This document shows, one piece after another, positions 28,066 through 36,702 of a stretch of 64,000 nucleotides of DNA (position 1 is its first letter; the number at the start of each line of letters is the position of its first letter). The stretch is from Sphingomonas sp. ATCC 31555 (GTDB taxonomy: Bacteria > Pseudomonadota > Alphaproteobacteria > Sphingomonadales > Sphingomonadaceae), in contig NZ_ALBQ01000013.1 in assembly GCF_000282895.1 (NCBI RefSeq), forward strand, positions 1-64,000, written 5' to 3'. The position numbers were made by a program, and so were the translations under genes. The notes under the pieces were generated by a model, which worked only from the letters and a program-made list of their open reading frames with translations, was not told where the DNA came from and did no database searches.

Positions 28066-28398
28066 TCAGGCGGACAGCAGCCGTCGTTCGAGCAGCGCCT
28101 GGAAATCGCGGCGGCCATCGGCGATCAGCAGCACGAAGACATGGTCGACGATCACCCGGTAGAGCAGCCGATAGGGCGGCGCGACCAGCTGGCGAAAGTC
28201 GCGGATGCCGATCGCGTCCAATTCGGCCGGCACGCTGCCGCGATCGGGGAAGGATTCGAGGCTCTCCACCTTGGCCAGCATCGCCTCCAGAAACGCATCG
28301 GCCTGTTCGGGCGAGCGATGCGCGGCGATCCAGCCATGGATATCGGCCAGATCGGCTTCGGCGCCGGCGGTGAGGAATACCGTGTAGCCGCCGCTCAT
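28066..28398 (-). CDS. ParE/RelE-family toxin
   Basis: A 110-residue toxin of the RelE/ParE superfamily. The pattern is YTVFLTAGAEADLADIHGWI at the start, a helix with SPEQADAFLEAMLAKVESLE, then FRQLVAPPYRLLYRVI and a closing strand HVFVLLIADGRRDFQ. Its ATG overlaps the antitoxin stop (ATGA), the normal layout of such pairs. Whether it acts on gyrase (ParE) or mRNA (RelE) cannot be told. Placed next to parA, it likely serves as the stability (addiction) module of the replicon. Confidence 0.88.
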   Translation of the reverse strand: MSGGYTVFLTAGAEADLADIHGWIAAHRSPEQADAFLEAMLAKVESLESFPDRGSVPAELDAIGIRDFRQLVAPPYRLLYRVIVDHVFVLLIADGRRDFQALLERRLLSA

Positions 28399-28682
28399 TC
28401 CGCGGTGGCGCCCTTGCCCTTCCCGGCGCGTAGCCGTGCGATGGCCTCGCGCGCCGGCGTGACCCGACCCGCTTCCACGTCGCGCGTGCCGAGCGCGAGC
28501 AGCTTGAGCAGCGCCAGCGTCTCCTGCGTCGCCTGATAGCTGGCGACATCCTGCAGCACCGCGCGCGCCTCGCCATTCTGGGTGATGACCAGCGGCGCGC
28601 CGCCCTCCGCCAGCCCGCGCAGTACGTCTGCGGCATGGGCCTTGAGATAGCTGACCGGCTTCACTTGCTCGCTGTAGCGCAT
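28395..28682 (-). CDS. Phd/YefM-family antitoxin
   Basis: A 95-residue antitoxin. GGAG precedes the ATG at 28682. Residues 1-55 show the Phd/YefM DNA-binding fold (VKPVSYLKAHAADVLRGLAE, then PLVITQNGEARAVLQDVASY), and the C-terminal part (about 60-95) is the toxin-neutralising tail. It comes before the toxin and overlaps it by four bases. It probably also represses its own promoter, whose -10 lies inside an inverted repeat. Confidence 0.9.
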   Translation of the reverse strand: MRYSEQVKPVSYLKAHAADVLRGLAEGGAPLVITQNGEARAVLQDVASYQATQETLALLKLLALGTRDVEAGRVTPAREAIARLRAGKGKGATAE

Positions 28683-28704
28683 GCGCTCTCCGCAGGACTG
28701 ATAA

Positions 28705-28740
28705 CGGACCGAATATAGTCCGCTGCTGTTCCGACGACAA
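28705..28740 (-). promoter_or_regulatory. Toxin-antitoxin promoter with operator-like inverted repeat
   Basis: On the minus strand TTGTCG (28740-28735) and TATATT (28717-28712) are separated by exactly 17 bases. The -10 is enclosed by CGGAC (28705-28709) and GTCCG (28718-28722), an inverted repeat that would suit autorepression by the antitoxin. The antitoxin ATG lies about 30 bases downstream. Confidence 0.5.
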
Positions 28741-28843
28741 GCCACGCCGGCTGTTGCAGCCGGAAGTAGCAAACCTTGCCGATTTGAAGCAAATGCGGCA
28801 TATGCTGCGCAACACTCATTCAATCGCCGGGACGAAATCAGCT

Positions 28844-30043
28844 ATGCATTCAGACATCGAGCGGATCGGCGAACTGGCGGACGCCGGCGAACGAATGATC
28901 GAACGGCTGCGTCGCAAGGCCTTCCTACCCGAAAGCCGCAAGGGCCTCCATGTCCGTTTCGGCATCGCCGAGGCGGCGCAGCTGCTCGGCTGCTCCACCA
29001 ATCGCATCCGCATGGCGGAAGACGATGGCCGCCTGCCCCCGCCCCCGCCGAGCGAAAATGGCCGGCGGCCGGGCTATACGGTGGAGGAGCTGCTCAACAT
29101 GCGCCGCGTGCTGGGCGCCTCCCCTGCCCGCGCCCCCCTCGACGTGCCGGCGATCATCGCGGTGCAGAACTTCAAGGGCGGCGTCGGCAAATCCACCGTC
29201 ACCACCCATCTCGCCCATTATTTCGCGGTGCAGGGCTATCGCGTGCTCGTCGTCGATTGCGACAGCCAGGCGACGACGACGACGCTGTTCGGCTTCAATC
29301 CGCATTTCAACATCACCCGCGAAGAGACGCTATATCCCTATCTCTCGATCGATCCCACCCAGGCCGACCTGCTCTATGCAGTGAAGAAGACGCCCTGGCC
29401 GAATGTCGATCTGATCCCCTCCAACCTGGAACTGTTCGACGTCGAATATGAACTGGCCGCGGCCGGTGCCGATGGCGGATCGATCCTCGCCACGCGGTTT
29501 CGCAAGCTGAAGGCGGGCCTGAGCGACCTCGCGCGCGACTATGACGTGGTGATCCTCGATCCCCCGCCCGCGCTGGGCACGATCAGCCTGGCGGTGATGC
29601 AGGCGGCGAACGCATTGCTGGTGCCGCTGGCCGCGACGACGCCGGATTTCTGCTCCACCGTCCAGTTTCTGTCGATGATGGACCAGGTGCTGCACCAGCT
29701 CACCGAAGCCGGCATCGAGGTGCAATATGATTTCGTGCGGCTGATCTGTTCGAAGTTCGACGGCAACGATCCCAGCCACGCGATGGTGCGCCAGATCATG
29801 GAGCAGGCGTTTGGCCCCGCCCTGCTGCCGGTGCCGATCCTGGAATCGGCCGAGATCAGCCATGCGGCGATGCGGATGATGACGATCTACGAACTCGATC
29901 GCCCGATCGGCACGGCGCGCACGCACAAGCGCTGCAAGGCCAATCTGGACGAGGCATTGGGCCAGGTAGAGGCGCTGGTGCGCCGCAACTGGGGCCGCGT
30001 CGCGCCGGCCAGCGAAGAGGATGTCGTCAATGAAGCGGCTTGA
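28844..30043 (+). CDS. parA: ParA partition ATPase with N-terminal DNA-binding domain
   Basis: A 399-residue type Ia ParA. Residues about 35-100 form a MerR-like winged-helix part (RFGIAEAAQLLGCSTNRIRM, then GYTVEELLNMRRVLG), which in such ParAs mediates operator binding. The ATPase core has the deviant Walker A KGGVGKSTV (about residue 112), VVDCDSQAT as the A' box and VVILDPPPALG as Walker B. It is followed by parB 58 bases downstream. It should use ATP on nucleoid DNA to position copies of the replicon bound by ParB, and probably represses its own operon. Confidence 0.93.
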   Translation: MHSDIERIGELADAGERMIERLRRKAFLPESRKGLHVRFGIAEAAQLLGCSTNRIRMAEDDGRLPPPPPSENGRRPGYTVEELLNMRRVLGASPARAPLDVPAIIAVQNFKGGVGKSTVTTHLAHYFAVQGYRVLVVDCDSQATTTTLFGFNPHFNITREETLYPYLSIDPTQADLLYAVKKTPWPNVDLIPSNLELFDVEYELAAAGADGGSILATRFRKLKAGLSDLARDYDVVILDPPPALGTISLAVMQAANALLVPLAATTPDFCSTVQFLSMMDQVLHQLTEAGIEVQYDFVRLICSKFDGNDPSHAMVRQIMEQAFGPALLPVPILESAEISHAAMRMMTIYELDRPIGTARTHKRCKANLDEALGQVEALVRRNWGRVAPASEEDVVNEAA

Positions 30044-30101: not shown

Positions 30102-31184
30102 GTGGCACGGACGCAAAAGGATTATCTTGCCGATCTGCTGGCCGATGAAGTCGCGGCGGAAGCGCCCGTGCCGGCCGAGCCCGTGGTGGAGGCCAAGGCT
30201 GCGCCAACACCGGCACCCGCCGATCCCGCGCCGCGGCTGCAGCGATCGCGCGGCACCACGCTGCTGGGCCGCGAATCGGCATTGGCGCGCGTCGCTTCGG
30301 GCGAGGTGCGGCAGGTCACCCAGCTGCTGCTCGATCCCGCGCGGGTCCGCATCTGGCCGGGCAATGCCCGCGTCTATGCCGATCTGACGGAAGAGAATGT
30401 CCGCGAGCTGATCGATTCGATCGTCGCGGAGAACGGCCAGAAGGTGCCGGCGGTGGTCCGCCGCGTCGACGGCGACCCCGACCACGACTATGAAGTGATC
30501 GCCGGCACGCGGCGCCACTTCGCCATTTCCTGGCTGCGCGCGCACAGCTATCCGGACATGGTGTTCGTGGCGCAGGTCGCGCAGCTCGACGACGAGGCTG
30601 CCTTTCGCCTCGCCGACCTGGAGAACCGCGCCCGCAAGGACGTGTCCGATCTTGAGCGGGCGCGCAACTATGCCGACGCGCTCAAGGCGCATTACGGCAA
30701 CCACCTGACGCGGATGGCCGAGCGGCTGAAGCTTTCCAAGGGCTGGCTGTCGAAGATGATCAAGGTCGCCGGCATTCCCGATGCGATCCTCGCCGCCTTT
30801 GCCTCGCCGGCCGACGTGCAGCTGAAGCCCGCCTATCCGCTGGCGCAGGCGCTGGACGACAAGACCGCGGCCCGGGCCATCCATGCCGAGGCCCGCACGC
30901 TCGCCCGCGAACAGGCGGAACGACGCGCGGCAGGGCTCGTGGCGATCGGCGCGGCCGACGTGATCCGCCGATTGATGGCCGCGCCCAGCGGGGCCGCGGC
31001 GCAGGGGCCGATCTGTTCGTTCGCGGTCAACGGCCGAGCGGCGCTCAGCGTGCTGTCCGCCAATCGCCAGGGCGTCACCATCCGCCTCCATGCGGGCTCC
31101 GGCGCCGATGCCGAACAGCTCGCCCAAGCCTTGCGCGACGCCCTCGAGCAACTCGAACGCGACGGCCGAGGCCTACAACGGTGA
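30102..31184 (+). CDS. parB: ParB partition protein
   Basis: A 360-residue ParB starting at GTG with a GGGAGG just upstream. The N-terminus has a basic/acidic region for ParA contact, then the ParB/Srx-like nuclease-CTPase domain (about 65-165) including VIAGTRRHFAISWL, the GxxR motif. The helix-turn-helix (about 200-230) reads LTRMAERLKLSKGWLSKMIK. The C-terminal dimerisation part closes the chain. Two perfect CCCCGGGG-centred palindromes follow the gene directly and are the likely parS sites. Confidence 0.93.
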   Translation: MARTQKDYLADLLADEVAAEAPVPAEPVVEAKAAPTPAPADPAPRLQRSRGTTLLGRESALARVASGEVRQVTQLLLDPARVRIWPGNARVYADLTEENVRELIDSIVAENGQKVPAVVRRVDGDPDHDYEVIAGTRRHFAISWLRAHSYPDMVFVAQVAQLDDEAAFRLADLENRARKDVSDLERARNYADALKAHYGNHLTRMAERLKLSKGWLSKMIKVAGIPDAILAAFASPADVQLKPAYPLAQALDDKTAARAIHAEARTLAREQAERRAAGLVAIGAADVIRRLMAAPSGAAAQGPICSFAVNGRAALSVLSANRQGVTIRLHAGSGADAEQLAQALRDALEQLERDGRGLQR

Positions 31185-31186
31185 CG

Positions 31187-31206
31187 GTGTTTCCCCGGGG
31201 AAACAC
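31187..31206. repeat. parS-like palindrome, copy 1
   Basis: GTGTTTCCCCGGGGAAACAC is a perfect 20-bp palindrome starting two bases after the parB stop. The outer part (GTTTC...GAAAC) matches the arms of chromosomal parS (TGTTTCACGTGAAACA), while the core is CCCCGGGG instead of ACGT. It is repeated at 31469-31486. A ParB centromere is the natural reading. Confidence 0.75.
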
Positions 31207-31468: not shown

Positions 31469-31486
31469 GTTTCCCCGGGGAAACGC
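31469..31486. repeat. parS-like palindrome, copy 2
   Basis: CGTTTCCCCGGGGAAACG is a perfect 18-bp palindrome. It shares the 16-base core GTTTCCCCGGGGAAAC with copy 1, 282 bases earlier, and lies 30 bases before repA. The region 31185-31515 between parB and repA holds only these sites and one hairpin; I see no gene in it. Confidence 0.75.
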
Positions 31487-31515: not shown

Positions 31516-32703
31516 ATGACCCAGGCCGAACGCCCCGCCCCGCCCGACCAGTTCGACCTGTTCCTCCCCTATCTGGCGGACATGCCGCTGCGCGATCAGC
31601 GCGAGATGATGGAGCGGCCGTTCTTCAGCCTCGCCAAGTCCAAGCGGGTGAAGCCGATCGATTATAAGAGCCCCGACGGCAAGCTGTGGGTCCATGTCTC
31701 CGCCAACCCCGATTACGGCATGGCGACGATCTGGGATGCCGATATCCTGATCTATTGCGCGAGCGTGCTGGCCGACATGGCGCGGCGGGGGCGCAACGAC
31801 ATTCCGCGCAAGCTCCACCTGATGCCGTACGATCTGCTCCGCGCGATCGGGCGGCCGACCACCGGCCGGGCCTATGAGCTGCTCGGCCAGTCGCTCGATC
31901 GGCTGGTGGCGACGACGATCAAGACCAACATCCGCGCCGAGAACCGCCGCGAGGCGACGTTCAGCTGGCTCGACGGCTGGACCCAGTTGGTCGACGAGAA
32001 GACCGAGCGATCGCGCGGGATGACGATCGAGCTGTCCAGCTGGTTCTACGAAGGCGTGCTGATGACCGGCGGCGTGCTGTCGATCGACCGCGCCTATTTC
32101 GACCTCACCGGCGGGCGCGAGCGCTGGCTCTACAAGGTCGCGCGCAAGCATGCCGGCGGCGCGGGCGAGGCGGGGTTCGCCATTTCGATGCCGACGCTGT
32201 TCGAAAAGTCGGGCGCGGAGGGCCAGTATCGCCGCTTCAAGTTCGAGATCGCCAAGATCGCCGAACGCGACGAGCTGCCCGGCTATACGCTGTCGCTGGA
32301 AACCGCCGCGGGCAAGCGCGAGCCCAGCCTGCGGATGCGGCGCCGCGCGGAGGGCGAGCAGCGCGCCCCCCTGCCCCGCCCGGCCGCTCGCGCGACGCCC
32401 GCCGCCGCAGCGACCGCGCCCGAGGATGCTCCAGCGGAGGGCGCGACACTGTCTGCGGAAGCCCGTGCCCTGCTCCGCCGATCGCTCACCACGCTGGCCA
32501 ACCGCGCGTCGAGCGGGATGGTGACCGACGCCACGCTGGCGCAGCTGCGTAGCGAATGTCCGGGCTGGGACTATCAGGAACTCCATCGCCAGTTCCGCGA
32601 CTGGGTGGAGGGCGATCCCGCGAGGACACCCGCCAATTATCAGAACGCGTTCATCGGCTTCGTCCGCCAGTGGCACGCACGCAACAAGCACCAGTTGCGC
32701 TGA
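31516..32703 (+). CDS. repA: Plasmid replication initiator RepA (RPA family)
   Basis: A 395-residue initiator. ATG 31516 (MTQAERPAPPDQFDLFLPYL) was chosen because the conserved part begins there and the preceding frame is mere proline/arginine filler. Residues about 15-275 carry the RPA-family pattern: ADMPLRDQREMMERPFFSLA, DYGMATIWDADILIYCAS, PTTGRAYELLGQSLDRL and WFYEGVL. The last 120 residues include an alanine/proline linker and a helical tail (WDYQELHRQFRDWV). It should bind the iterons that lie immediately downstream and start replication. Order parA-parB-repA is typical of sphingomonad plasmids. Confidence 0.93.
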   Translation: MTQAERPAPPDQFDLFLPYLADMPLRDQREMMERPFFSLAKSKRVKPIDYKSPDGKLWVHVSANPDYGMATIWDADILIYCASVLADMARRGRNDIPRKLHLMPYDLLRAIGRPTTGRAYELLGQSLDRLVATTIKTNIRAENRREATFSWLDGWTQLVDEKTERSRGMTIELSSWFYEGVLMTGGVLSIDRAYFDLTGGRERWLYKVARKHAGGAGEAGFAISMPTLFEKSGAEGQYRRFKFEIAKIAERDELPGYTLSLETAAGKREPSLRMRRRAEGEQRAPLPRPAARATPAAAATAPEDAPAEGATLSAEARALLRRSLTTLANRASSGMVTDATLAQLRSECPGWDYQELHRQFRDWVEGDPARTPANYQNAFIGFVRQWHARNKHQLR

Positions 32704-32766
32704 ACCGAGACAGGTCTGCGCGCCCGGTGCGCCGGACAGACCCTCCGCCGCCGATCGATCGCTTGC

Positions 32767-32784
32767 GCCGTTCCCGAAGTGTCG
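32767..32784 (-). repeat. Inverted iteron copy
   Basis: Read on the minus strand, CGACACTTCGGGAACGGC matches the consensus of the downstream iterons at nearly every position. It lies 64 bases after the repA stop and 144 bases before the first direct copy, so it may serve as a control or looping site. Confidence 0.65.
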
Positions 32785-32927
32785 GGCACCTGCTGCGTCA
32801 CGCTGTCGAACCGCCGATGAAGGTGTCGCATTTGAACCTGTTCGGCACGATCCTGTCGCGAACTGATTCAAGCGAGGCGATCCGCCGTGCAATCCATGCC
32901 GGACATCTCCCGCTTGTACTGGCGTTT

Positions 32928-33033
32928 CGACACACCAGGAACGGTCTTCGCCCCTTCGGGAACGCCGCTTCGATCCTTCGGGAACGCCACCGCCGATCTT
33001 TCGGGAACGTGCACCCGACATTTCAGGAACACC
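32928..33033 (+). repeat. Five direct iterons with about 22-bp spacing
   Basis: Copies begin at 32928, 32949, 32971, 32994 and 33016 (spacings 21, 22, 23, 22, i.e. about two helical turns). The 18-base consensus is CGANMYTTCGGGAACGCC. Copies 2-4 carry TTCGGGAACG exactly, and copies 1 and 5 have CAGGAAC. A weaker seventh copy may lie at 32848-32865. Repeats of this spacing directly behind a rep gene are classic RepA binding sites. Confidence 0.85.
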
Positions 33034-33170
33034 CCAGCCCCCGCGAATCGTGGTTCTCTGCGGGCTCTCCGCACGCCGGCGCGCGCCTAACTCTCTAAAG
33101 ATTTCTCTTGAACCCTCTTAACCCCTCGGCGAGATTTCATTTTCTGAAGAACAGAGAGAAGGGGAGGGGC

Positions 33171-33905
33171 TTGCGCGACCCGAGTACATCATCCCGCACG
33201 CTGCCGACGCTGCGGCCGCTGACCCGCCGCACGGCCCTGATCGGCGCTCTGCTCGGCTGCGCTTCCCCGGCACTCGCCCGCCGGCCGCGCCTCCTTCACC
33301 GCGATCGCTTCGTGAGCGGCATCGCGCAGTGGAAGATCGAGCTCGAGCGGGCCGGCCGCATTACCGCCGCCAACGGCGTGCTCGACATCGACGTACCTGC
33401 CGGCGCGACCGTCTGGTTCCGGCCGGTGCTCGAAGGCCCGGTCGCGATTGACTATACCGTGATCCCGGTCGCCGAGGGCGGCGCGAACGACGCGGTGAGC
33501 GACGTCAACTGTTTCTGGATGGCGCACGACCCTGCCGCGCCAGCCGGCGATGCCCTGGTAATCCCGCGCAGCGGCGCCTTTGCCGACTATGACCGGCTCG
33601 CGACCTATTACGCCGGGATCGGCGGCAATCGGAACAGCAGCTCGCGCTTCCGACGCTACGTCGCCAAGGCCGGCATACGGCCGCTGCTGCCGCAACACGA
33701 CCTCTCCGCCCCGCGCGACCTTCTCGTGCCGAACCAGCCGCTGCGCATCCGCCTGATCGCCGATGGCCGGCATATCGCGCTCCATCGCGATGGTCGGGCG
33801 ATGTTCACGCTCGACGATCCCGCCCCCTATCGCCGCGGCCATTTCGGCTTTCGCACCACGCAGAGCCATTTGCGCGTGCTGGACTTCAAGGTCTGGCGTC
33901 TATAG
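33171..33905 (+). CDS. Exported DUF6250-like protein, probable polysaccharide enzyme or binding protein
   Basis: About 244 residues from TTG 33171, chosen because a purine-rich GGGGAGG precedes it; an earlier in-frame start at 33108 would lie in the origin. The N-terminus has a Tat-type signal (LTRRTALIGALLG, cut near ALARR). The mature domain is beta-rich with VWFRPVLEGPVAIDYTVIP, NCFWMAHD and the final HFGFRTTQSHLRVLDFKVW. That is the jelly-roll pattern of YesU-like/DUF6250 proteins found in rhamnogalacturonan gene clusters. Catalysis is not established. It opens the sugar-use block next to the origin. Confidence 0.65.
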   Translation: MRDPSTSSRTLPTLRPLTRRTALIGALLGCASPALARRPRLLHRDRFVSGIAQWKIELERAGRITAANGVLDIDVPAGATVWFRPVLEGPVAIDYTVIPVAEGGANDAVSDVNCFWMAHDPAAPAGDALVIPRSGAFADYDRLATYYAGIGGNRNSSSRFRRYVAKAGIRPLLPQHDLSAPRDLLVPNQPLRIRLIADGRHIALHRDGRAMFTLDDPAPYRRGHFGFRTTQSHLRVLDFKVWRL

Positions 33906-33914
33906 CCCAAAAAT

Positions 33915-33927
33915 CACATTGTGGGAT
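33915..33927 (+). promoter_or_regulatory. Shared sugar-regulon motif, site 1
   Basis: CACATTGTGGGAT fits YACWWTGTGRRAY. It lies 57 bases before the PL26 gene in an A+T-rich gap, and is followed by a GCCACATA that could form a wider inverted repeat with TGTGG. The same motif occurs before three other pectin-use transcription units. Confidence 0.5.
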
Positions 33928-33984
33928 GTATGGCCACATATTAAGCTTCCTCAAAGAATCAGATTTTTGGGAGAGCGATCCGCC

Positions 33985-36702
33985 ATGCACCGACACGACA
34001 GCACCCGGCGTGCGCTTCTCGGCACCGGCCTGGTGGGGATCGCCACCGTTGCAGCCCCGCTGCCCCGCGCCAGCGCCGCGCCGGCCCCGCCAGCCGCCGA
34101 TGCCGCCTGGATCGATGGCGTACCGCCCGCCGGCCCCGGCGAGGGCCGGATGTGGGGCCAGGCATGGCCGCAGGGCCGCCTGAAGCGCACTACGCCGCTG
34201 CGCCTCGTCGACCAGGAGGGCCGCGCCGTCCCGGTCCAGAGCTGGACCACCGCCACCTGGCCCGACGGCTCGGTGAAATGGACCGCGCACGCCATTCCCG
34301 CCAGCCTGCCGCCGACCGGTGGCTACCGCCTCACCCCGGGCCGCCCGGCGACGCCCGCCGCGCCGCTTACCGTTCGCACCCTGCCGGATCGCATCGAGAT
34401 CGCAAGCGGGGCACTGCGCTGGCAGATCGCCCGCAGCGGACCCGCTTTGCTCGAAGCGCAGGGGGCAGGGGGCGAGACGCTGATCGCTCCCGCCGCACTG
34501 ATCGGCGAAGTTCGTCTGGGCGGCCCGGAAGCAGCCCGAGTGCCGCTGCAAGGCGTCATCGAGCGCGCCGAGGTTGAACAGGCAGGCCCCGTCCGCGCCG
34601 TCGTGCGCGTCGAGGGGCGCCATCGCGGCGGCGGCCGCACGATGCTGCCTTTCACTGTTCGGCTGGAGGCCTTTGCGGGATCGGCCGGGCTGCGGATCGT
34701 CCACAGCCTGGTCTATGATGTGGATCCCGACGACGCGTTCGTCTCCGGCCTGGGCATCACCGCGCGCGTGCCGATGCGGGGGGCGCTGCACGACCGACAT
34801 GTCCGGCTCGCCACCGGGCCCGAGACGCTGTTCGCCGAAGCCGTGCGCCCGCTCACCGGCCTGCGCCGCGATCCGGGCCCCGCCTTTCGCGCCGCGCAGG
34901 TGGCGGGCCGCGCCGTGCCGCCGATCGACCAGATGCGCGCACCGGTGCCGGCGCTGCTCGAACGCATTCCCGCCTGGGATGCGTTCCGCCTGACCCAGCA
35001 CTCCGCCAACGGCTTCACACTGGCCAAGCGGACCGGAGAGGGCGCGGCCTGGATCGAGGCAGGGGAGGGGCATCGTGCGCCTGGCCTGGCCTATATCGGC
35101 TCGCCGCAGGGAGGCGCCGCGATCGCCCCGCGCTGGTTCTGGCAACGGCACCCGACCGAGTTGGAAATCGCCGGTGCCGCCACCGATGCTGCCCAGCTCA
35201 CCGCCTGGCTGTGGTCGCCCCGCGCGCCGGCGATGGACCTGCGCCCCTATCACGGCACGATGGGAATGGAAGGCTATGCCGCCCAGAACGAAGGACTGAA
35301 TATAACCTATGAGGATTATGAGCCAGGCTGGGACACGCCAACGGGGATCGCCCGCACCAGCGAGCTGATGCTATGGGCGCTGCCCGCCACGCCGCCCTCC
35401 GCGCAGCTGGTGGCGATGGCGCAGGCGGCGGCCGAACCGCCCCGGCTGATGGCCGATCCCGCCCAGCTTCATGCCGCAGGCGTATTCGGCGACTGGGGCC
35501 TGCCCGATCGCTCCACCCCGATGCGCGCGGCGATCGAGGACCAGCTGGACCGGCTGGTCGATTTCTACGCCGGCGAAGTCGATCGCCGCAGCTGGTATGG
35601 CTTCTGGAATCATGGCGACGTGATGCACAGCTATGACGGCGATCGGCACCAGTGGCGCTATGATATCGGCGGCTTCGCCTGGGCGAACAGTGAGCTTTCG
35701 CCCGATCTGTGGCTGTGGACGGCGGCGCTGCGCAGCCGCAACGCCCAGGCCTTTCGCCTTGCCGAGGCGATGACCCGGCATACCGGCGAAGTCGATGTCT
35801 ATCATCTCGGCCGCTTCGCCGGGCTCGGCACCCGCCACGGCGTGCAGCATTGGAGCGACAGTTCGAAGCAGCCGCGCGTCAGCAACGCCGCCTATCGCCG
35901 CATCTTCTACTATCTTACCGGCGACGAGCGCACCGGCGATCTGCTGCGCGCGCTGACCACCTCGCACGAGGCGCTGCGCCGCGTGGAGATCGGCCGCAAG
36001 GTGCCCGGCGCCAAGCGCGAGGCGCTGCCCGAAGGGGTGATCGAGATGACCTTCGGCACCACCTGGGCGGTGCTGGCCGGCGCCTGGCTGACCGAATGGG
36101 AGCGCACCGGCGACGGCAAATGGCGCGACCGGATCGTCGCGGGGATGGACAGCATCGGCCGGCTGCCGCGCGGCTGGCTGACTGGCAGCGCGCCCTATGA
36201 TCTGGCGAGCGGTCGCTTCCTCGATCGTGGCCCGAAGATCCAGCTGTCGCACCTCAACGCCGTGTTCGGCGCAGTCGAGGTGAATGCCGAGCTGCTTCGC
36301 CTGCTCGACGTGCCGCGCTACCGGACAGCGTGGCTCGATTATTGCCGGTGGTATAATGCGCCTCGCCCGGAGTGGCTGGCGAAATGGGGCGAGCCGTTCG
36401 GCCCGCGCAACCTGCGCGAAGGGCATTCGCGGCTCACCGCCTATGCCGCGAACGCGACCGGCGACGCCGCACTGGCCGCGCGAGCGGCGGAAGAGTTTCT
36501 GTCCGGCGGGGCGGGGCTGGGCCTCGATCCCGCCGATCCGCGCCGGCCGCTGCCGGGGGGCGGGGTGGAATGGCCAGGCATTTCCACCAACGCCGCCTCT
36601 CAATGGGGACTGGCGGCGATCCAGAACCTCGCGCTGATCCCGGCGGCGCTCGACACGGCGACGGTGCCACCCCGCCGCGCGCGCGGCGGGGGAGGGGAGT
36701 AA
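33985..36702 (+). CDS. Exo-rhamnogalacturonan lyase-like protein (PL26/YetA-like)
   Basis: A 905-residue exported protein. A Tat signal occupies the N-terminus (STRRALLGTGLVG, cut near RASA). The first part (about 40-330) is beta-rich (VRVEGRHRGGGRTMLPFTVRL) and the rest has the toroid helical repeats of PcRGLX/YetA-like proteins, with RSWYGFWNHGDVMHSYD, WRYDIGGFAWANSE and LSHLNAVFGAVE. The family removes unsaturated disaccharide units from rhamnogalacturonan I. Periplasmic location is expected. Its last codons lie in a perfect 22-bp palindrome. A regulon motif precedes it. Family assignment is good, exact specificity is inferred. Confidence 0.82.
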   Translation: MHRHDSTRRALLGTGLVGIATVAAPLPRASAAPAPPAADAAWIDGVPPAGPGEGRMWGQAWPQGRLKRTTPLRLVDQEGRAVPVQSWTTATWPDGSVKWTAHAIPASLPPTGGYRLTPGRPATPAAPLTVRTLPDRIEIASGALRWQIARSGPALLEAQGAGGETLIAPAALIGEVRLGGPEAARVPLQGVIERAEVEQAGPVRAVVRVEGRHRGGGRTMLPFTVRLEAFAGSAGLRIVHSLVYDVDPDDAFVSGLGITARVPMRGALHDRHVRLATGPETLFAEAVRPLTGLRRDPGPAFRAAQVAGRAVPPIDQMRAPVPALLERIPAWDAFRLTQHSANGFTLAKRTGEGAAWIEAGEGHRAPGLAYIGSPQGGAAIAPRWFWQRHPTELEIAGAATDAAQLTAWLWSPRAPAMDLRPYHGTMGMEGYAAQNEGLNITYEDYEPGWDTPTGIARTSELMLWALPATPPSAQLVAMAQAAAEPPRLMADPAQLHAAGVFGDWGLPDRSTPMRAAIEDQLDRLVDFYAGEVDRRSWYGFWNHGDVMHSYDGDRHQWRYDIGGFAWANSELSPDLWLWTAALRSRNAQAFRLAEAMTRHTGEVDVYHLGRFAGLGTRHGVQHWSDSSKQPRVSNAAYRRIFYYLTGDERTGDLLRALTTSHEALRRVEIGRKVPGAKREALPEGVIEMTFGTTWAVLAGAWLTEWERTGDGKWRDRIVAGMDSIGRLPRGWLTGSAPYDLASGRFLDRGPKIQLSHLNAVFGAVEVNAELLRLLDVPRYRTAWLDYCRWYNAPRPEWLAKWGEPFGPRNLREGHSRLTAYAANATGDAALAARAAEEFLSGGAGLGLDPADPRRPLPGGGVEWPGISTNAASQWGLAAIQNLALIPAALDTATVPPRRARGGGGE
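36670..36691. repeat. Perfect 22-bp G+C palindrome at the 3' end of the PL26 gene
   Basis: CCCCGCCGCGC and GCGCGGCGGGG are exact mirror complements with no loop, within the last codons of the lyase gene. It sits between two convergent genes and may act as a terminator hairpin. It encodes the arginine/glycine-rich tail PPRRARGGGG. Confidence 0.55.

What the first reader, a model, noticed from the sequence alone, without database searches (positions are those of the whole stretch)
32704..33170. Iteron-type replication origin behind repA
Five direct copies of an 18-base iteron (consensus CGANMYTTCGGGAACGCC) at 21-23-base spacing, one inverted copy at 32767-32784 and a weak copy at 32848-32865 lie directly after repA, followed by A+T-rich DNA up to 33160. 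With repA, parA, parB and parS-like sites this is a complete replication-partition locus. Its presence amid metabolic genes argues that the window comes from a megaplasmid or chromid.
Basis: partly seen in the sequence, partly recalled or inferred. Interest (0 to 1): 0.75.

Follow-up and report, generated by a model that had tools for sequence, protein, structure and literature searches.

The report
Plasmid origin carrying a partition operator
Next to a plasmid replication gene of a Sphingomonas-like bacterium lies an array of repeats, the predicted replication origin, which also holds the same two-armed 40-base DNA motif that stands just ahead of the plasmid's partition genes, so the partition protein ParA would likely help control when the plasmid copies itself.

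Summary
The iterons are real: five direct copies (starts 21, 22, 23, 22 bp apart) and one inverted copy follow repA (PF10134). The 'weak copy' is not an iteron. It lies inside a 40-bp element, TTGAA-N30-TTCAA (32832-32871). An element with the same arms and gap sits just ahead of parA (28784-28823); no third perfect one is in the 191-kb contig. Among the 80 best related repA loci (of 565 found), all 80 have iterons and the origin element; 72 of 79 have the parA-promoter element.

Distances between inverted iteron, element and first iteron fall into classes one or two helical turns apart. In a related plasmid group both elements carry other arms (6 of 9 loci). The origin element is missing in 3 of 3 RepA plasmids with other partition genes. 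Its right arm holds GANTC (CcrM-type) in 77 of 80 loci, the promoter element's in 0 of 72.

Best reading: an iteron origin of a pR1a-like plasmid containing the par operon's operator, likely bound by ParA. Binding, and whether it slows or helps initiation, is untested. Megaplasmid/chromid status is not shown. Ten searches of an open-access library (capped lists) showed no report of such an operator in an iteron origin.

The parts
28784..28823 (.). 40-bp element TTGAA-N30-TTCAA ahead of parA (predicted operator), 20 bp before the parA ATG
   Evidence: N30 element with up to 1 mismatch ahead of parA in 72 of 79 named loci
28844..30043 (+). parA, 399 aa, ParA of type Ia size with a weakly matched N-terminal HTH region
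   Evidence: AAA_31 (E 6.6e-33) and MerR-type HTH (E 6.5e-5, 23.1 bits, below its cut-off of 28.2); aligned with solved plasmid partition protein A 3ez2 over residues 5-332, E 7e-25
30102..31184 (+). parB (SopB-type HTH; ParB_N just above its cut-off)
31189..31204 (.). parS-like palindrome GTTTCCCCGGGGAAAC, copy 1
   Evidence: at least one palindrome of this kind within 2.6 kb ahead of the origin element in 65 of 80 named loci
31469..31484 (.). parS-like palindrome, copy 2
31516..32703 (+). repA, replication initiator of family PF10134 (RPA)
   Evidence: E 1.1e-65, 221.8 bits against a cut-off of 27
32770..32784 (-). single inverted iteron CGACACTTCGGGAAC
   Evidence: an inverted iteron upstream of the element in 80 of 80 named loci
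32832..32871 (.). origin element TTGAAC-N26-TGATTCAA (predicted ParA operator); its right arm holds GATTC
32865..32869 (.). GANTC site (GATTC) in the right arm of the origin element
   Evidence: GANTC there in 77 of 80 named loci
32928..32942 (+). direct iteron 1
32949..32963 (+). direct iteron 2
32971..32985 (+). direct iteron 3
32994..33008 (+). direct iteron 4
33016..33030 (+). direct iteron 5
33045..33049 (.). GANTC site (GAATC), 29 bp after the start of iteron 5
   Evidence: a GANTC at +28/+29 in 53 of 80 named loci
33088..33123 (.). A+T-rich stretch with TAAC repeats, predicted unwinding element
   Evidence: where the pattern was found in relatives it mostly starts 70-73 bp after the start of iteron 5

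Best explanation
The region is likely the replication origin of a pR1a-like Sphingomonas plasmid, and between its inverted and its direct iterons it holds a two-armed 40-bp element of the same kind as the one ahead of the partition genes, an operator that is predicted to bind the partition protein ParA. Shown by sequence: iterons, element at both places, helical spacing, conservation, and other arms at both places in a related plasmid group. Inferred: RepA would bind the five direct iterons and the inverted one and open the A+T-rich stretch. ParA would bind TTGAA-N30-TTCAA ahead of parA, to repress parAB-repA, and at the origin. Because the sites keep helical phase, ParA would sit inside a RepA-RepA DNA loop. 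ParA-ADP should rise when ParB-parS complexes (plasmid copies) are many. My committed model is therefore negative feedback: many copies give more ParA-ADP, which represses the operon and locks the origin; after segregation the lock opens. The GANTC in the origin element alone would allow methylation to tune the lock there. The sign (brake rather than aid) is the least certain step.
For: Two perfect sites in 64 kb against 0.01 expected; 3 in the 4.05-Mb genome, two of them these. Whole-record scan of 10 related plasmids (5.29 Mb): 18 perfect sites, by their positions 10 at the origin, 7 ahead of parA, 1 elsewhere; the reversed control pattern gave 1 (read). Origin element with gap 30 in 80 of 80 named loci, element ahead of parA with gap 30 and up to 1 mismatch in 72 of 79. 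In group C the parA arms are GGTTTG-N30-CNAAC[CT] in 8 of 9 loci, and the best match to a locus's own arms (10-11 of 12 letters, runner-up 8-9) lies in the origin in 6 of 9. Iteron origins of three RPA plasmids with a short ParA plus an RHH protein (L029, L116, L117) lack the element, 3 of 3. Distances inverted iteron to element are 61-62, 71-72, 82-83 or 103-104; element to iteron 1 are 64, 74-75 or 96. ParA aligns with the solved partition protein A 3ez2 from residue 5 on. In repABC plasmids the ParA homologue RepA with ADP binds its own operator of imperfect palindromes without cross-reaction (PMC4492784, abstract and passages).
Against: No binding or replication data. ParA and RepA of this clade occur in the same 33 of 397 family genomes (my reading of the lists), so co-occurrence does not exclude RepA as the binder. 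Three of nine group C loci (L096, L107, L111) show no origin copy. Four group B loci have no convincing origin copy (best 9 of 12 letters) but a parS-like palindrome there. Group D (L098, L105) shows no N30 element ahead of parA. Ahead of parA, gaps 25 and 26 also score 12 and 15 times with up to 1 mismatch, against 72 for gap 30. The HTH match of ParA is below its cut-off. The 80 loci are the nearest relatives by RepA and not independent trials. The RepA model was of low confidence (pLDDT 48).
Confidence: 0.68

Rival explanations
1. RepA itself, as a dimer, binds the 40-bp element at both places: it represses its own operon from the parA promoter and uses a like site in the origin, as initiators of some iteron plasmids do.
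For: RepA and ParA of this clade occur in the same 33 of 397 genomes; the left arm shares GAAC with the iteron.
Against: Apart from GAAC the arms do not look like the iterons (by eye). Arms 30 bp apart are wide for a dimer of this kind (recalled). Three RPA origins with other par genes keep iterons and inverted iteron but lack the element.
Confidence: 0.14
2. A host protein (IHF-, DnaA- or cell-cycle-regulator-like) binds the element; its presence at both places reflects host control.
For: GANTC in the right arm of the origin element; TCCACA (DnaA-box-like) next to the left arm in 6 of the 43 loci printed (L009, L010, L017, L018, L041, L043).
Against: Groups A and C with different arms occur in the same genomes (G372: L043 and L106; G246: L049 and L108), so the arms follow the plasmid, not the host. 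No DnaA or IHF consensus with up to 1 mismatch in 32704-33190.
Confidence: 0.06
3. An ordinary iteron origin; the element is a regulated promoter copied into the origin (for a priming or control RNA), with ParA repressing it.
For: The like element ahead of parA seems to overlap a promoter.
Against: The conserved TTG-type box just ahead of the left arm at parA (-35-like) is not conserved ahead of the origin element (logos).
Confidence: 0.1
4. The locus is a relic: a plasmid origin now integrated in a chromosome and inactive.
For: Some relatives lie in contigs of 1.56 to 3.66 Mb (L126, L143, L160).
Against: The genes and sites named here are all present without breaks; pR1a, the nearest relative, is a closed plasmid; dnaA lies on a different contig.
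Confidence: 0.05

Closest known systems
pR1a of Sphingomonas sp. R1 (NZ_CP110112.1), rep_cluster_545
   Same: RepA 85.9%, ParA 99.2%, same genes after repA, five iterons with the same spacing, perfect elements at both places
   Different: 257-kb closed circle; the window's contig is 191 kb and open. The table shown lists protein genes only, so it says nothing about an annotated origin.
repABC plasmids (RepA-type ParA, operator, parS, RepC)
   Same: ParA homologue with its own operator and autorepression (PMC4492784, abstract and passages); origins rich in GANTC (PMC6090056, passages)
   Different: The initiator here is RPA-type RepA with iterons, not RepC; a like operator stands inside the origin.
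Vibrio cholerae chromosome II origin with ParB2
   Same: A partition protein binds directly at a site in the origin and tunes initiation (PMC3688505, abstract and part 1 of the discussion)
   Different: There ParB2 competes with the initiator at 39-mers; here the site resembles the parA-promoter element and the likely binder is ParA.
pPS10 / pUT1 / pPDL2-type iteron origins
   Same: Iterons, A+T-rich stretch and Rep initiator; the pPDL2 RepA shows RPA and Rep-3 similarity and its mini-replicon works (PMC3516476, passages)
   Different: In pPDL2 the origin lies upstream of repA; here it lies downstream and includes the element.
pVS1 replicon of plant binary vectors
   Same: Partition gene, repA, then oriV, in that order (recalled, not tested)
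   Different: Membership of its RepA in PF10134 and presence of an operator were not tested here.

Membership tests
Iteron-type theta-plasmid origin | Several direct repeats at about two helical turns next to a rep gene | tested here: met
   Five copies, spacing 21, 22, 23, 22; conserved in relatives
Iteron-type theta-plasmid origin | A+T-rich unwinding region beside the iterons | tested here: met
   44% GC block at 33100 and TAAC repeats; unwinding itself not tested
Iteron-type theta-plasmid origin | DnaA box in the origin | tested here: not met
   No TTWTNCACA with up to 1 mismatch in 32704-33190; not universal among such origins (recalled), so not held to exclude membership
Iteron-type theta-plasmid origin | Initiator binds the iterons and the region supports replication | not testable with these tools
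   Needs footprint and mini-replicon
RPA (PF10134) replication initiator | Profile match above the curated cut-off | tested here: met
   221.8 bits against 27
Winged-helix initiator fold (RepE/pPS10-like) | Two winged-helix domains | tested here: inconclusive
   No PDB sequence match up to E 1; model pLDDT 48, not searched further
Type Ia ParABS partition system | Long ParA with N-terminal DNA-binding domain | tested here: met
   399 aa; aligned with 3ez2 from residue 5; own HTH profile match weak, below cut-off
Type Ia ParABS partition system | ParB gene and parS-like palindromes | tested here: met
Type Ia ParABS partition system | ParA represses its own promoter through an operator | not testable with these tools
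   Inverted arms that seem to overlap the parA promoter fit it
repABC replicon | repC initiator gene | tested here: not met
   The third gene is RPA-type repA
Megaplasmid or chromid | Closed large replicon, with core genes for a chromid | tested here: inconclusive
   191-kb open contig; no Rfam family at gathering score in its first 140 kb

The most novel reading that the evidence does not exclude
ParA of these plasmids is a direct replication regulator: ParA-ADP, produced in proportion to ParB-parS complexes, binds an operator built into the iteron origin and holds a phased RepA loop shut. A CcrM-type methylation site present in the origin element but not in the promoter element would release or reset this lock once per cell cycle. 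Segregation state, copy number and host cell cycle would then be read at one 40-bp site, and a related plasmid group (B) would reach the same end by placing parS there instead.
Probability: 0.3. Interest if true: 0.87.

Novelty: new variant of a known kind. Interest (0 to 1): 0.68.

Why it matters
How low-copy replicons tie replication to segregation is an old open question with few molecular examples. Here the tie would be a defined 40-bp site, present in 80 of 80 named loci examined and found again ahead of parA in most of the same plasmids (72 of 79). That makes the question directly testable with one ParA, one RepA and two short DNA fragments, in a plasmid family with RepA relatives in 1,172 plasmid records at E 1e-5 or better (69 of them cover at least 80% of RepA in one place). 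The steps of about 10.5 bp between the sites also suggest a loop-shaped origin complex.

Tried and rejected
Weak iteron at 32848-32865: rejected, it lies in the 40-bp element, mostly its variable spacer. DnaA or IHF site in the window's origin: none with up to 1 mismatch. GC-skew switch at 33 kb: weak overall signal, detrended minimum 10 kb away, raw minimum elsewhere. RepA fold: AlphaFold model too poor to search, no PDB sequence match. A decoupling test with the same ParA and another initiator was not found: the same 33 of 397 genomes hold both (by my reading of the lists; local RepA matches of 62-66% in G196, G055 and G067 left out: the first two are group B, the third a fragment). Group D (L098, L105), L109, L110 and L113-L115 gave no clear operator. 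L053 and L059 (short arrays) were left out of the logos, which used 43 loci after removing near-identical ones. First-pass element searches used 6+8 arm letters with gap 26, later ones 5+5 letters with gap 30: the same element. L119 (Swingsia) has an element with 1 mismatch and gap 30 behind repA; its par genes were not examined.

Literature: 10 searches; several lists were capped at 10-20 of 15-66 papers, and the library lacks most subscription journals. No listed paper that I opened described, in what I saw of it, a parA operator inside an iteron origin. Nine papers were opened: passages, an abstract, an outline or part of one section, no whole text.

Full report
What is there. The window is bases 1-64000 of contig C13 (190,989 bp) in a 4.05-Mb, 62-contig genome. 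From 28.8 to 33.2 kb it carries parA, parB, repA and then a stretch with the sites described here. RepA belongs to PF10134 (RPA); ParA is a long Walker ATPase with a weak N-terminal HTH match; ParB has a SopB-type HTH. The closest plasmid is pR1a of Sphingomonas sp. R1, a 257,344-bp circle: RepA 85.9%, ParA 99.2%, same two kinds of genes after repA; two other parts of the window also match it. dnaA is on contig C11. A plasmid is therefore the likely setting. A chromid is not shown.

Iterons. The degenerate 15-mer CGAYMYWWCRGGAAC finds six sites in the window (up to 1 mismatch; shuffles mean 0.16): one inverted at 32770-32784 and five direct at 32928-33030. I compared the DNA behind repA in 54 loci: the window, 24 plasmid records picked from the 60 listed, and 29 genome loci, the best matches. 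53 of 54 have an array of three or more; the miss is L063. In a second set, the 80 loci kept of 565 relatives in named genomes (RepA 66-88% identical in the best segment), 80 of 80 have an array: 75 with five and 5 with six iterons. The spacing 21, 22, 23, 22 occurs in 54 of 80, and 21 of the other 26 have 31-33 at the first step.

The 40-bp element. Between the inverted and the direct iterons lies TTGAAC-N26-TGATTCAA. In the first set 51 of 54 loci have it with up to 2 mismatches, the best hit always with the same gap; L029 and L030 lack it and L063 has no array. In the second set all 80 have TTGAA-N30-TTCAA (75 perfect, 5 with one mismatch).

The like element at parA. The same arms at the same gap stand 20 bp before the parA ATG, at 28784-28823; the spacers differ. 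In the whole genome the perfect pattern occurs three times, two of them these. In 10 whole plasmid records (5.29 Mb) there are 18 perfect sites; by position 10 are at the origin, 7 ahead of parA and 1 elsewhere, and the reversed control pattern gave 1. In the other three plasmids the parA element has a mismatch (L010, L020) or gap 31 (L013). Of 23 plasmid-set loci examined (L014 and L023 were not given to the call) an N30 element with up to 1 mismatch was seen ahead of parA in 19; L013 has gap 31, and L027, L029 and L030 gave none. L027's upstream was cut there; its full upstream shows only a 2-mismatch copy with gap 30. In the named set it was found with up to 1 mismatch in 72 of 79 (one locus had no parA); gaps 25 and 26 scored 12 and 15 times there. 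Counted otherwise, 72 of 79 have it with up to 2 mismatches at the fixed place 386-388 bp ahead of the Walker codon used. Ahead of the left arm at parA a TTG-type box is conserved, so the element seems to overlap a promoter; ahead of the origin element no such box is conserved.

Phasing. In the 80 loci the distance inverted iteron to element is 61-62 (32 loci), 71-72 (31), 82-83 (14) or 103-104 (3); element to iteron 1 is 64 (3), 74-75 (71) or 96 (6). The eight distinct values of the first distance have a resultant of 0.948 at 10.5 bp, and none of 20,000 random draws reached it; neighbouring values and related loci are not independent, so this is a guide only. The first set adds values of 60 for the first distance and 65 and 86 for the second, in step, and 118 in L053, where only three iterons were scored. 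The classes differ by one or two helical turns, which suggests a loop.

Co-variation. More distant RepA/ParA modules were fetched (20 stretches). In group C (nine loci) the arms at parA are GGTTTG-N30-CNAAC[CT] in eight and AGTTTG-N30-CAAAGT in L111. The best match to each locus's own arms lies in the origin, ahead of the direct iterons, in 6 of 9 (L097, L101, L102, L106, L108, L112, with 10-11 of 12 letters; L102, L108 and L112 are much alike); L096, L107 and L111 show none. Group A arms at gap 30 with up to 1 mismatch are absent behind repA in all 10 distant loci scanned. Genomes G372 and G246 hold a group A and a group C module each, so the arms follow the plasmid, not the host. In group B (L099, L100, L104, L030) the parA arms are CTAA-N30-TTAG in 3 of 4. 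The origin has no convincing copy (best 9 of 12 letters), but a palindrome GTAAAAC[AG]CGTTTTAC 49-53 bp ahead of iteron 1, and a like palindrome stands at the parB-repA junction in all 4, hence parS-like. Group D (L098, L105) shows no N30 element at parA.

Par swap. L029, L116 and L117 have RPA RepA (59-62% identical), iterons, an inverted iteron and TAAC repeats, but a short ParA and a ribbon-helix-helix protein. None of the 3 has TTGAA/TTCAA with up to 1 mismatch at any gap of 20-40 in 1.3 kb behind repA. The element thus goes with this kind of ParA, not with RPA RepA as such.

Why ParA. The profile of the ParA alignment matches the solved plasmid partition protein A 3ez2 (P1 ParA, as I recall) over residues 5-332. 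For repABC plasmids, the ParA homologue RepA binds its own operator of imperfect palindromes, specifically with ADP and without cross-reaction (PMC4492784, abstract and passages). ParB is accounted for by the palindromes, RepA by the iterons. This is elimination and analogy, not proof.

GANTC. The right arm of the origin element contains GANTC in 77 of 80 loci; of the 72 promoter elements scored none does. A further GANTC stands 28-29 bp after the start of iteron 5 in 53 of 80; the background in C13 is 0.0013 per base. The genome holds one RAMA-domain protein, a domain that among 14 control genomes rang only in Caulobacter, in line with a CcrM-type methylase (inferred). GANTC-rich origins are known from repABC replicons (PMC6090056, passages).

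Mechanism. I commit to negative feedback: more plasmid copies give more ParB-parS, hence more ParA-ADP (ParB stimulates the ParA ATPase: PMC4492784, passages), which represses the operon and, at the origin, stabilises a closed RepA loop. Shown: anatomy, conservation, co-variation in part of the group C loci. Inferred: binder, loop, sign. A partition protein acting directly at an origin has a precedent in ParB2 of V. cholerae chromosome II (PMC3688505, abstract and part of the discussion).

Noticed in passing
window 28066-28419 (-) and 28395-28823 (-): ParE-type toxin and Phd/YefM antitoxin reading frames beside parA on the other strand (the second frame as listed reaches into the parA-side element, but its domain match starts at residue 53); the same kind of pair lies beside parA in pR1a.
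   Followed up: partly
window 33108-36702: DUF6250 protein and a PcRGLX-family protein directly behind the origin; a stretch of pR1a with rhamnogalacturonan genes aligns with about 50.7-63.8 kb of the window.
   Followed up: partly
G000:C7 40244-41095 (L034 10262-11122): A second, shorter RPA initiator (34% identical) with a ParA-like gene nearby on a 69.6-kb contig: probably another plasmid of the strain.
   Followed up: partly
L099, L100, L104, L030 (group B): The origin carries a parS-like 16-bp palindrome 49-53 bp ahead of iteron 1, in the region where group A has the predicted ParA operator.
   Followed up: partly
L120-L199, behind iteron 5: GANTC sites tend to stand at +28/29, +37/38 and +46/47, i.e. 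9 bp apart.
   Followed up: no
L143, L126, L160: The same replication-partition module lies inside contigs of 3.66, 1.61 and 1.56 Mb: possible integration into chromosomes or large secondary replicons.
   Followed up: no
L110: Eight copies of a 16-bp palindrome ATTCCACGCGTGGAAT around parB-repA, one of them 123 bp behind repA.
   Followed up: no
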